From positions 23,116-87,115 of the forward strand of contig JAJDAT010000029.1 of the NCBI GenBank assembly GCA_029261715.1: 64,000 bases of DNA, in the 5' to 3' direction. Each line of letters starts with the position of its first letter. Position 1 is the stretch's first letter. The notes under the pieces were generated by a model. The model was not told the origin of the DNA, did no database searches, and saw only the letters and a program-made list of their open reading frames with translations. Of the stretch, positions 13,785 through 17,063 are shown one piece after another. The position numbers and the translations under genes were made by a program. The stretch comes from Nitrospinia bacterium. GTDB taxonomy: Bacteria > Nitrospinota > Nitrospinia > Nitrospinales > JAJDAT01.

Positions 13785-16700
13785 GTGGATCGTATCGCCG
13801 AAAAGAATCGCCTCTCCCCCATCTTTGGGCCAGACGGACAGCCACTCTCGCGGCTGAACGGATCCCGAAATGGGGTGGCCATCAAGAACCTGCTCGGCGG
13901 GTTCAGCGGCTACGTCCAGCAGCTCCTCGGCACGAGGCGTCCGCCTTTCATCCAGGCCAAGACGCCGTTCGAGTCTCACGCGTGGGTCTTCGCTGCGTCC
14001 ATGGCGATCGCAAACACTGCGAGCCAGGCACAGTTCCTCGTCTACCAGGAGACCGACGCCGAGCAACAGCGCCGCCGCGACGCTGCCGTCCGAGCGGGCC
14101 GGACGACGCGGGCGAGGGCCGGGGTGCATCGGCGCGCCTACGAGCGGCACCTCGCTGGCGCTCCCTCGCTCAAGCGCCTCTCGATGAAGGCTGCCGAGCC
14201 CGACTATGAGCACCCGATCTACGACCTGATCCGCCGGCCCAATCCCTACCAGGTCGGCGGCCAGCTCATGGCGCTGACCCATTTGTGGATGGCCATCCGC
14301 GGCGAGGCGTTCTGGGTACTCTCGGACGACGATGGCATGCCGGTGCCGCCGGGGCAGATGCCCACTCGGATCTGGCCGCTCTCCCCGGATTGCTTCAGCG
14401 AGCGCTACGCCAACGGCCGAGACGGCGAGATCGTCGGCTGGGAGATCGCGCTGCCTCGGTGGATGCCGGGGGCGCATCGCAAGAAGCTCAACGTCACGCT
14501 CGACGAAGTGATCCAGTTCAAATTCCCCGACCCTCGGAACCCGGCTCGCGGTCTCTCCCGCATCGGCGCAGCAGCCGCCGGCATCGAGCTCGACCTCTTA
14601 ATCAAGGTGCACGGTCGATCGCTCCTCGAGAAGCAAGCCGTGCCTCGCGGGATCATCGTCTACGAGAATGGCGTCCTCGAGGAAGAGGAAGAGGAGGAGT
14701 ATCGCGAGCGCTGGGAGGAGCAGCACGCGGGAGCCGAGAGGTCGGGCCGCATCGCCATCCTCAGCGGCGGCTTCAAGTACCAGTCGATCGCGCTCAGCCC
14801 GACGGACATGGGCCATCTCGAGCAGCTCGCGTGGGATCGCGACGAGGTGCTCGCGGTCATGGGCACTCCCAAGGCGGTGCTCGGCGTCACGGAGCAGCTC
14901 AACTACGCCACGCAGATTGGGCAGACCGCAAACTTCTGGGACCAGACTCTCCTGCCGCTCCTCCGACTCGAGGAGCAGACTCTCGACGCGACCATGTTCT
15001 TCGCGCAGACCGATCGCACGTTCGGCGCGTTCGATCTCTCTCAGATCGACGCGCTCCGGGTGGGTCTCGAGGAGAAAGCGAAGGCTGCGGATCAGTTCTG
15101 CGCGGAGCGGCTGCACATGCCTCCGCGCGTGGCCTACCAGATCGTCGGTCTTGATGTCCCCGAGTATGAGGGGGATGAGACGGCGCTCGTCTCCGCTCTG
15201 GCGACGCCTGTCCAGAGCATTCTCGAGGAGGACTCTCCTCCCTCCCCGAGCTCCGAGCCGGCGTCCTCGGACGACGAGCCCGTAGCGGCGGCCCGGGGCG
15301 GACGCTCGCCCCGCCCCGGGCCTGGCGCACCGGCCATCCACCGATCGCGCCACGACAAGGCGAAGAGCGTTTGGAAGCGCTTCATTGCGGTCCAGTCCCG
15401 CGTCGAGTCGCCGTTCCGCCGGCGCTACAAGAAGTGGGTGCGGCTCGAGCGCACCGGCACCCTCGAGCGATTCGACAAGGCTGTCGAGGACGCAAAGCGC
15501 CTCGCACGCATCAAGGCTGCGATCGACCTCACCGCCATCCTGCCCATCCTTGCGGAGTCGCGATCTGCGCTCCGCACACAGACGCGGCCCTTGCTGGCCA
15601 GCGCGATGCTCGAGACGTGGGACCTCACGCTCGACGAGATCCCGATTCCGACGTTCGCGATCGATGACGGGACCTTCGTTTCGTACTTCACCGAGCACGA
15701 GAACCTCTTCCTCGAGCACACGCCGCGCACCACGTTCGAGACACTGCGCACGTCACTGACCGCCGGTATCCAGAACGGGGAGACGGTGCAGCAGCTCCGC
15801 GTGCGGATCGGCGAGGTCTACGACCTGGGAGCATCGAGCCACAAGACATTGCTCGTCGCTCGCACAGAGACGGCCAGCTTCATGAACGGCGTGCGCGATC
15901 GCATGTTCGACGAGGCTGGATTCGAGAAGACGGATTGGCTCACCGCCGAGGACGAGAACGTCCGCGAAGACCACGTGAAGTTCGGTGAGCACGAGCCTGT
16001 GGCGCGAGGGACCAACTACCTCGCGCTCATCGGGAAGGAAGCCGAAGGCGTCCTGGAGTACCCAGGCGACCTGCGAGCGCCCATCGGGCAGAAGGCGAAC
16101 TGCTTCATCGCCGGAACGATGGTACAGGCAGGTGGCCTACTCCAGGGCTTCTCGCGGGAGTACAGCGGCCATGTGCTTGAGGTGACGCTCGCGTCCGGTA
16201 CGAGGTTCTCCGTCACCCCAAATCATCCGGTACTTGGGACACATGGATGGGTCGCCGCGAAGCTGCTTCGCCAGGGCGACTGCGTATTCCGCAGCACCGA
16301 CGGTGAACGGGTGTTGAGGCAGTTTCTGCCAGACGCAGATTACCGTCCAACCCCAATTGAGGAGCTTGCTCGTCCGCTCTCGATGCCGGCAGGAATTGCC
16401 CAAGGGATGCCCGAAGACTTCCACGGCGACGGGCGGGACGGTGATGTCCACGTTGTACGTCTCGATGGGGGTTTGGTGTCCGGGCAGTTCGCCCAAATCC
16501 CGGATCCACTCAAGAATCAGCTCCTCGCCGGTCCCGACCCACGTTTCGGCACATTGGACCGTACGCGCGCGTTGCCGGAGGCCGGGCTTCTTTCGCTTGG
16601 CGCCTCGGAGTGCATCGTTGGCGAAGGCCGCAAGGCGACTTCTCTCAGCGGCGGACGTCTGAGACATCCGCAAGAACATGGACTCGCTGCGGTTTCTCGG

Positions 16701-17063
16701 TCGAAGTCCGGCCTCGCGCAGGATTCGGCAAATCACATTGCGAGACACACCGAAGCTGCATGCCAGGTTCTTGACGGACCGGCCACTTTCAAATCCAAGC
16801 ACGACAGACTGCTCATCGACAGTGACACGCACCGGTCGACACCTGTCACCGACTATTCGGCGGGCGCGGTTCCCTCCAATGGCGTAGCGCTTCGCGACCG
16901 CCTTCAGGCTGAGCCCGGACTCGTAGTCCTTGATCAGGTTTTGAACGTCCGACTCCGTGAGTTTGCGGGGCCGGTTTTCAACCTCGAGACGATTCACGGC
17001 TTCTACCTCGCAAACAGTGTCGTTTCGAGCAACTGCCGGTGCGCCAGCACTCCGGCGAATTAG
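13785..17063 (+). CDS. Portal-MuF head morphogenesis fusion containing an intein
   Basis: A 1092-residue precursor. Residues 1-460 are an HK97-type portal (SHAWVFAASMAIANTASQAQ, HPIYDLIRRPNPYQ, MGTPKAVLG, NYATQIGQTANFW). A Pro/Ser-rich linker follows to about 515, then a MuF (SPP1 gp7-like) domain with ARTETASFMNGVRDRMFDEA and WLTAEDENVREDHVKF. The MuF metal-binding motif QKAN/CRC is interrupted by a 311-residue intein (773-1083), leaving only CRCASTPAN as C-extein. After splicing the product would be 781 residues. The portal forms the DNA gate of the capsid, and MuF joins head assembly. The GTG start at 13785 lacks a clear ribosome site. An antisense gene lies within the intein. Confidence 0.9.
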   Translation: MDRIAEKNRLSPIFGPDGQPLSRLNGSRNGVAIKNLLGGFSGYVQQLLGTRRPPFIQAKTPFESHAWVFAASMAIANTASQAQFLVYQETDAEQQRRRDAAVRAGRTTRARAGVHRRAYERHLAGAPSLKRLSMKAAEPDYEHPIYDLIRRPNPYQVGGQLMALTHLWMAIRGEAFWVLSDDDGMPVPPGQMPTRIWPLSPDCFSERYANGRDGEIVGWEIALPRWMPGAHRKKLNVTLDEVIQFKFPDPRNPARGLSRIGAAAAGIELDLLIKVHGRSLLEKQAVPRGIIVYENGVLEEEEEEEYRERWEEQHAGAERSGRIAILSGGFKYQSIALSPTDMGHLEQLAWDRDEVLAVMGTPKAVLGVTEQLNYATQIGQTANFWDQTLLPLLRLEEQTLDATMFFAQTDRTFGAFDLSQIDALRVGLEEKAKAADQFCAERLHMPPRVAYQIVGLDVPEYEGDETALVSALATPVQSILEEDSPPSPSSEPASSDDEPVAAARGGRSPRPGPGAPAIHRSRHDKAKSVWKRFIAVQSRVESPFRRRYKKWVRLERTGTLERFDKAVEDAKRLARIKAAIDLTAILPILAESRSALRTQTRPLLASAMLETWDLTLDEIPIPTFAIDDGTFVSYFTEHENLFLEHTPRTTFETLRTSLTAGIQNGETVQQLRVRIGEVYDLGASSHKTLLVARTETASFMNGVRDRMFDEAGFEKTDWLTAEDENVREDHVKFGEHEPVARGTNYLALIGKEAEGVLEYPGDLRAPIGQKANCFIAGTMVQAGGLLQGFSREYSGHVLEVTLASGTRFSVTPNHPVLGTHGWVAAKLLRQGDCVFRSTDGERVLRQFLPDADYRPTPIEELARPLSMPAGIAQGMPEDFHGDGRDGDVHVVRLDGGLVSGQFAQIPDPLKNQLLAGPDPRFGTLDRTRALPEAGLLSLGASECIVGEGRKATSLSGGRLRHPQEHGLAAVSRSKSGLAQDSANHIARHTEAACQVLDGPATFKSKHDRLLIDSDTHRSTPVTDYSAGAVPSNGVALRDRLQAEPGLVVLDQVLNVRLREFAGPVFNLETIHGFYLANSVVSSNCRCASTPAN
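16101..17033 (+). other. Intein within the MuF NCRC motif
   Basis: Intein residue 1 is Cys (CFIAGTMVQA, block A). Block B is VTPNHPVLGTHGW (T39, H42), and the block F/G region is AGPVFNLETIHGFYLAN followed by SVVSSN, then the +1 Cys of the extein. This Hint-fold layout, and insertion exactly between N and C of a conserved NCRC, are classic for inteins. The penultimate His of block G is Ser here, a natural variation known in some inteins that can slow splicing. Residues 100-170 carry PEDFHGDGRDGDVHVV. There is no LAGLIDADG nuclease in the sense frame; the nuclease appears to be on the other strand. Confidence 0.88.
16137..16997 (-). CDS. Putative homing endonuclease, antisense within the intein
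   Basis: 286 codons on the minus strand, lying wholly inside the intein and in register with its codons. Residues 12-50 and 57-100 are two helix-turn-helix units (LSLKAVAKRYAIGGNRARRI; SVKNLACSFGVSRNVICRIL) like those used for site recognition. Residues 155-262 resemble a Vsr/DUF559-type PD-(D/E)XK nuclease: GEELILEW, then YNVDITVPPVAVEVFG with D184 and E193, then RHRERTSKLLNWGWTVICVW, and a terminal KYRMIWGDGE. Start chosen: GTG at 16997, with GAGG 8 bases upstream. The frame is open further upstream, but only this part shows protein-like motifs. It would cut intein-free MuF alleles to spread the intein. Function is inferred. Confidence 0.75.
   Translation of the reverse strand: MNRLEVENRPRKLTESDVQNLIKDYESGLSLKAVAKRYAIGGNRARRIVGDRCRPVRVTVDEQSVVLGFESGRSVKNLACSFGVSRNVICRILREAGLRPRNRSESMFLRMSQTSAAERSRLAAFANDALRGAKRKKPGLRQRARTVQCAETWVGTGEELILEWIRDLGELPGHQTPIETYNVDITVPPVAVEVFGHPLGNSCRHRERTSKLLNWGWTVICVWQKLPQHPFTVGAAEYAVALAKQLRGDPSMCPKYRMIWGDGEPRTGRERHLKHMAAVLPREALE

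What the first reader, a model, noticed from the sequence alone, without database searches (positions are those of the whole stretch)
16137..16997. Homing endonuclease-like gene encoded antisense inside the intein that houses it
Inteins that move usually carry their nuclease in the same reading frame. Here the minus strand of the intein encodes 286 codons with two helix-turn-helix units and a Vsr/DUF559-like nuclease core (D184, E193), starting at GTG with a good ribosome site and ending inside block A/B of the intein. Every codon is the exact complement of an intein codon. If real, one DNA segment encodes a protein-splicing domain on one strand and its mobility nuclease on the other. I know of no described example, but could not search.
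Basis: partly seen in the sequence, partly recalled or inferred. Interest (0 to 1): 0.96.

Follow-up and report, generated by a model that had tools for sequence, protein, structure and literature searches.

The report
Intein with its nuclease gene antisense
In a phage head gene, and in 148 other distinct sequences, the DNA of a predicted self-splicing protein segment (an intein) also carries, on its opposite strand and in the same codons, a conserved gene for a predicted DNA-cutting enzyme that would likely spread the intein.

Summary
The 286-codon minus-strand frame (16137-16997) lies wholly inside a 311-aa intein (16101-17033) of a portal-MuF fusion gene, in exact codon-complement register. 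In 149 of 149 distinct sequences examined (window included) this nuclease domain lies antisense to an open frame. Each frame is conserved beyond what the other forces, and codon-position changes show nuclease coding in the linker and dual coding around block B. The minus-strand model resembles Vsr, a DUF559-type protein and homing endonuclease I-Bth0305I; the plus-strand model is a Hint fold with a disordered linker. Biased codons in intein block F spell the nuclease's ribosome site and ATG; 42 of 81 testable relatives carry a sigma-70-type promoter inside the intein's last codons. An exact empty allele exists. The window's own copy has lost the family ATG, the promoter match and part of one active-site loop, so its activity is uncertain. 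Splicing, cutting and homing are inferred. One unread 2025 preprint may overlap.

The parts
13785..17063 (+). Host gene: portal-MuF head protein fusion, 1092 codons, interrupted by the intein
   Evidence: Phage_portal 8.5e-51, Phage_Mu_F, Intein_splicing; PHROG portal and head matches
16101..17033 (+). Intein, 311 aa, Cys1 to Asn311, followed by Cys (CRC)
   Evidence: Junctions; PF14890 5.1e-5; Hint model
16137..16997 (-). Antisense gene for the predicted Vsr-like homing endonuclease, 286 codons plus stop
16101..16307 (+). N-terminal splicing part of the intein (residues 1-69), including block B TPNH
   Evidence: Intein-frame excess conservation; pLDDT mostly above 80
16170..16307 (.). Doubly constrained zone: intein residues 24-69 opposite nuclease residues 231-276
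   Evidence: Excess in both frames; equal change at plus codon positions 1 and 3
16437..16967 (+). Linker of the intein (residues 113-289): predicted disordered on the plus strand, nuclease core edge and HTH units on the minus strand
   Evidence: pLDDT under 50 at 123-259; most change at plus position 1
16968..17033 (+). C-terminal splicing part (residues 290-311)
   Evidence: Intein-frame excess +0.27
16839..16955 (-). First helix-turn-helix unit (nuclease residues 15-53)
   Evidence: HTH_7 2.2e-4 at residues 9-40; helices
16713..16814 (-). Second helix-turn-helix unit (nuclease residues 62-95)
   Evidence: HTH_58 0.0013 at residues 64-103; helices
16212..16544 (-). Vsr-like nuclease core (residues 152-262); E158 at 16524-16526, D184 at 16446-16448, E193 at 16419-16421, H197 at 16407-16409
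   Evidence: in 85 aligned domains D184 85, E193 84, E158 82, H197 74
17005..17009 (-). GAGGT, ribosome-site-like, 7 nt before the GTG start at 16995-16997
16971..16973 (-). Place of the family ATG, here CGG (block F His is Pro); the family-type GAGGT is still present upstream at 16981-16985
   Evidence: Alignment, sequence
17000..17028 (-). Place of the family promoter: here TCGAAA-17-TAGAAG, 8 of 12

Best explanation
The minus-strand frame belongs to a conserved gene family for a predicted Vsr-like homing endonuclease, written codon-for-codon antisense inside a predicted intein of a phage portal-MuF gene, and this nuclease would spread the intein by cutting intein-free MuF genes. SHOWN by sequence: the register, the separate constraint on the two frames, the two folds as models, the codon-encoded ribosome site and start, a consensus promoter inside the intein in many relatives, an exact insertion with an empty allele. 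INFERRED: the intein splices itself out of the head protein; the antisense gene is transcribed from within the intein, so the nuclease can be made without the late head-gene transcript; it binds the conserved MuF site (PN|CRC), cuts alleles lacking the intein, and repair copies the intein in. Between the splicing blocks the DNA is read mainly as nuclease on one strand and as a tolerated disordered loop on the other. The window's own copy would need the upstream GTG and another promoter, and may be decaying.
Against: No transcript, protein, cleavage or splicing data. No promoter in the consensus scans of Snoke (L013) or the window. Promoter much rarer in the second set: 8 of 61. Window copy: family ATG and promoter match lost, GGxW loop lost. 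In 11 of 85 domains the aligned H197 is another residue. One pair has the N-extein more alike than the intein (L047/L058). Foldseek alone gave no PDB match at E 0.001 or better. No empty allele was found for the window's own phage. Target site of the nuclease not tested.
Confidence: 0.88

Rival explanations
1. The antisense frame is a by-product: a conserved intein in GC-rich DNA leaves its other strand open, and antisense similarity only mirrors intein conservation.
For: In the window the frame is open stop-to-stop for 727 codons; antisense of any conserved protein looks conserved.
Against: The nuclease frame exceeds what intein residues force at all zones but residues 1-23; open at GC 0.37-0.70 and 0.36-0.71; relatives and folds of known nucleases; codon-position pattern.
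Confidence: 0.03
2. The minus strand is a real nuclease gene and the plus-strand intein is dead, merely left open.
For: The linker has little intein-frame constraint of its own.
Against: Splicing ends conserved beyond nuclease demand (+0.17 to +0.27); Cys1, H42 and N311 invariant in 45 rows; the host gene continues in frame, and exact empty alleles exist.
Confidence: 0.03
3. The family is as described, but the window's own nuclease copy is a decaying relic.
For: Family ATG lost, promoter match 8 of 12, GGxW loop lost.
Against: Frame intact; E158, D184, E193 and H197 kept; a GTG with GAGGT 7 nt upstream; Gordonia copies also have altered loops.
Confidence: 0.4
4. The antisense gene is a DNA-binding regulator or defence nuclease that hitched a ride, not the homing enzyme.
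For: Two HTH units; Vsr/DUF559 cores also occur in other nucleases; no target test.
Against: Placed inside the intein in every member examined; gene ends inside the intein in 62 of 68; presence/absence at one exact site; I-Bth0305I, a homing endonuclease, among the nearest folds.
Confidence: 0.06

Closest known systems
Inteins with an in-frame homing endonuclease (PI-PkoII, PI-MtuI and kin; entries met)
   Same: Hint splicing domain, insertion at a conserved site, empty allele, a predicted mobility nuclease between the splicing blocks
   Different: Nuclease on the opposite strand as a separate gene; no sense nuclease domain in Pfam for 45 of 45 rows
Vsr-like (EDxHD) homing endonuclease I-Bth0305I (3r3p)
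   Different: Two N-terminal HTH units in the window (one in many relatives); encoded antisense in an intein. That I-Bth0305I is intron-associated is taken from the PDB molecule name
Antisense homing endonuclease genes in nuclear group I introns (PMC9548176, passages seen)
   Same: Nuclease gene on the strand opposite to its mobile host element
   Different: Host element is a self-splicing RNA and the nuclease gene is a large insertion in a peripheral segment; His-Cys family; here two proteins share codons
ShiLan-type hidden HNH insertions in phage methylases (PMC11855218; abstract, passages, sections 6, 18, 19 and part 1 of the references seen)
   Same: Nuclease hidden in another frame of an insertion that stays open in the host frame; GTG start
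   Different: No splicing domain found there, HNH family, out of frame; the passages do not mention antisense
[quoted passage not shown] only the reference entry was seen)
   Same: Covers actinobacteriophage inteins and is cited in PMC11855218 for overlapping frames; may include the Gordonia MuF inteins found here
   Different: Unknown: the text could not be read

Membership tests
Intein (Hint, Cys1 class) | Splicing residues: Cys1, block B T-x-N-H, terminal Asn, Cys+1 | tested here: met
   Window C1, TPNH at 39-42, N311, next residue Cys; C1, H42, N311 invariant in 45 rows
Intein (Hint, Cys1 class) | Sequence and fold match | tested here: met
Intein (Hint, Cys1 class) | Exact insertion with an intact empty allele | tested here: met
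   Snoke against fEg-Eco19 and K1ind2; not found for the window's own phage
Intein (Hint, Cys1 class) | Protein splicing activity | not testable with these tools
   Needs an experiment
Intein with in-frame homing endonuclease | Nuclease domain in the intein's own reading frame | tested here: not met
   Pfam finds no nuclease in 45 of 45 intein rows; the linker model is disordered
Vsr-like (EDxHD) homing endonuclease | Vsr-like core fold | tested here: met
Vsr-like (EDxHD) homing endonuclease | Acidic and His active-site residues | tested here: inconclusive
   E158 82, D184 85, E193 84, H197 74 of 85; correspondence to the published active site is recalled, not tested; the window loop is 3 residues shorter
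Vsr-like (EDxHD) homing endonuclease | Cuts the allele that lacks the element | not testable with these tools
   Needs an experiment
ShiLan-type hidden HNH insertion | HNH nuclease and no splicing domain | tested here: not met
   Vsr-like core and a splicing domain
Antisense endonuclease gene of a group I intron | Host element is a group I intron | tested here: not met
   Host element is an intein read in frame with MuF; no RNA-family search was run

The most novel reading that the evidence does not exclude
A widespread class of phage inteins carries its homing endonuclease as a self-contained antisense gene: nuclease, ribosome site and start codon, and in many members a sigma-70 promoter, are all written on the opposite strand of the splicing codons. 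The element brings its own expression unit to any MuF gene it enters and makes its nuclease independently of the late gene that hosts it.
Probability: 0.85. Interest if true: 0.93.

Novelty: new variant of a known kind. Interest (0 to 1): 0.88.

Why it matters
Inteins and homing endonucleases are well known, but as one polypeptide. Here two unrelated folds appear to share one DNA segment over most of an intein, in 149 distinct sequences, so one can map which codons serve splicing, which serve the nuclease and which serve both. It is an unusually clean natural case of antisense dual coding with regulatory signals inside coding motifs. Of the 20 annotated stretches fetched that carry it, none lists the whole antisense gene and one lists a partial antisense ORF, so gene callers miss it. 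It offers a testable answer to how a selfish nuclease lodged in a late structural gene could be expressed at another time.

Tried and rejected
Chance open frame: rejected for the family, though openness alone says little in the window. Dead intein: rejected. Sense-strand nuclease: none found. PDB search with P0001 alone gave only ribonuclease A-like matches of no weight. Consensus promoter scans of L013 and the window found none; the in-intein promoter came only from looking at the same place across relatives, after seeing it in the data, and one search is the test on new sequences. Terminator-like stems after the gene: 0 of 84 against 1.0 in shuffles. No match to the Snoke intein in the E. 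coli genomes at near identity. The scan with P0018 found no relative. One search lists stops in 49 of 85 read-through envelopes; these must lie outside model positions 65-250, which one open frame spans in 85 of 85. Four of the 72 loci (L028, L076, L086, L103) have junctions misplaced by my regular expression; they stayed in that test and were dropped. The statistics treat loci as independent; relatedness was addressed only by clusters, by pairs using each locus once and by the near-zero zones. Ten paper searches listed no paper on an antisense nuclease in an intein; the library lacks most subscription papers and all bioRxiv preprints, and most listed papers were seen as listings only.
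Full report
OBSERVATION. The minus-strand frame 16137-16997 encodes 286 codons from a GTG with GAGGT 7 nt upstream. It lies in the host ORF 13785-17063, a portal-MuF fusion, in exact codon-complement register. The intein runs from Cys at 16101 to the Asn ending at 17033, so the frame is wholly inside it. Openness alone is weak evidence here, since this frame is open stop-to-stop for 727 codons.

RELATIVES. A protein search gave 19 relatives among 2256 candidates. tblastn of phage records gave 118 records, one place each, 86 of them covering at least 80% of the query; the 60 listed include head morphogenesis and minor capsid genes of Gordonia, Klebsiella, Salmonella and other phages. 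A profile scan of viral contigs found 322 relatives, of which the best 80 were kept; one of genome contigs gave 5. In 109 of 109 sequences held then (108 loci, one being the window's own genome, plus the window) the nuclease domain is fully covered by an open frame on the other strand in the same register. These reduce to 85 distinct domains. The opposite frame shows intein blocks in most by eye, and a simple pattern found both junctions in 72 of 85. Four later scans (one without relatives) gave 106 loci and 64 further distinct domains: 64 of 64 antisense to an open frame, 64 of 64 with an intein N or C block opposite (63 and 62), and 60 of 64 spanning model 65-250 in one frame (the other four were not examined further). 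Exteins: 48 of 67 given match Phage_Mu_F, 11 Phage_min_cap2 and 2 VG15 (67 of the first 85).

THE REVERSE QUESTION. An intein-frame query found 334 relatives, of which 80 were kept; 80 of 80 carry a whole antisense nuclease, but the pattern lies opposite the nuclease active site. A query built from the N-terminal block alone gave 57 loci: 51 with a whole nuclease, 3 cut at contig ends, 1 partial (L380, whose intein frame is also broken), and 2 inteins of other genes with no nuclease and 11 and 3 antisense stops.

BOTH FRAMES ARE SELECTED. Holding the residues of one frame and redrawing synonymous codons gives the conservation the other frame would show by default. On 72 loci the nuclease frame has identity 0.355 against 0.195, the intein frame 0.302 against 0.206, each measured on the alignment built from the other frame. 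The nuclease-frame excess is +0.08 to +0.28 along the gene, +0.05 at intein residues 290-311 and about zero at 1-23. The intein-frame excess is +0.17 to +0.27 at residues 1-69 and 290-311, +0.14 at 94-112, about zero at 134-156 and 180-223, and +0.04 to +0.05 elsewhere. Relatedness could inflate such numbers; the near-zero zones show it does so little. In 21 pairs using each locus once, differences per codon at plus positions 1, 2 and 3 are 0.221, 0.180, 0.437 in exteins (pairs with at least 40% identity there), 0.447, 0.233, 0.310 in the linker and 0.331, 0.131, 0.331 at residues 24-69.

START SIGNALS AND PROMOTER. In 58 of 85 loci block F reads like HVYDLQ near the nuclease start. Its His is CAT in 56 of 58 (expected 25.0 from own exteins), so the other strand reads ATG; its Leu is CTC in 50 of 54 (expected 11.3), which gives GGAG; GGAGG occurs in 33 of 58 against a mean of 7.1 and maximum of 14 in 500 recodings. 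In 49 representatives at 70% identity CTC is 43 and CAT 47. In the new set CAT is 41 of 46 (expected 19.0) and CTC 34 of 41 Leu (expected 8.5). Upstream, still inside the intein, 42 of 81 testable loci carry a TTGACA/TATAAT-type promoter at 10 or more of 12 (60 recodings: mean 3.6, maximum 7; other strand 0), and 20 of 81 are perfect (mean 0.1, maximum 1); 41 of the 42 share one of two offsets. In clusters: 37 of 71 and 17 of 71. In the second set at the fixed place it is much rarer but still enriched: 8 of 61 against 0.48, maximum 3. Some others, such as Snoke, have an extended -10. The nuclease stop lies inside the intein in 62 of 68.

MOBILITY. Snoke carries an exact 816-nt insertion at HPN|CRS that fEg-Eco19 (flanks 95.6 and 89.3% identical) and K1ind2 lack; the Snoke announcement already noted the K1ind2 difference (PMC6776784, passages). 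L008 and L009 share 99.5% of intein bases but 57.6% of N-extein bases; L013 and L025 95.7 and 65.5%. The intein is the more alike part in 14 of 15 pairs, which were partly chosen for alike inteins; L047/L058 is the exception. No empty allele was found for the window's phage: its nearest portal relatives share about 20-30% identity.

THE WINDOW COPY. Its block F His is Pro, so the family ATG reads CGG; the promoter place scores 8 of 12; the active-site loop lacks GGxW, as in 13 others of 85, while E158, D184, E193 and H197 remain. It may start at the GTG 24 nt upstream, or be decaying; I put the chance of decay near 0.4.

MECHANISM. Shown: architecture, constraint, signals, insertion. Inferred: splicing, transcription, cutting and homing. 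An antisense gene with its own signals would free the nuclease from the late timing of the head gene; that idea is untested.

KNOWN WORK. Antisense endonuclease genes are known in group I introns (PMC9548176, passages), and a hidden out-of-frame HNH insertion in a phage methylase (PMC11855218; abstract, passages, sections 6, 18, 19, part of the references). MuF inteins of Salmonella and E. coli phages were noted without an antisense gene in the passages seen (PMC6776784, PMC8425127, PMC11162368). The ten searches named under Tried and rejected listed no antisense nuclease in an intein. A preprint on actinobacteriophage inteins with 'non-canonical architecture' is cited in PMC11855218 but could not be read; it is the main risk to novelty.

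Noticed in passing
L030:3500-4274 (host frame opposite): The same antisense nuclease lies opposite an intein whose N-terminal block looks different and longer (IRPGDRVLT type), as if splicing module and nuclease had been exchanged.
   Followed up: no
L017:2970-3687: The intein sits at another place of the head gene (before CTIDGKTRPSH rather than before CRC), so the family seems to have more than one target site.
   Followed up: no
L029 and L108, intein N-ends: No Cys is seen at the first intein position in the printed context; these may splice by another route or be inactive.
   Followed up: no
window 16380-16436 (intein residues 94-112): The intein-frame motif HGDG, opposite the nuclease active site, is conserved beyond what the nuclease residues force (+0.14), although it lies outside the known splicing blocks. 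Unexplained.
   Followed up: partly
L127:800-1852 (coordinates on the minus strand): In phage vB-Eco-KMB36 the nuclease profile matches in two pieces with model positions 107-134 missing.
   Followed up: no
L380 around 1639-2716: Intein frame broken soon after block B while the antisense nuclease match is partial: a frameshift, real or from assembly.
   Followed up: no
L144 and L145 (window genome, contigs C47 and C26): Two further intein-splicing matches in open frames of 2497 and 3737 codons in the same genome.
   Followed up: no
window 13785-17063: Portal and MuF head proteins are fused in one ORF here, whereas in several annotated relatives they are neighbouring genes.
   Followed up: no
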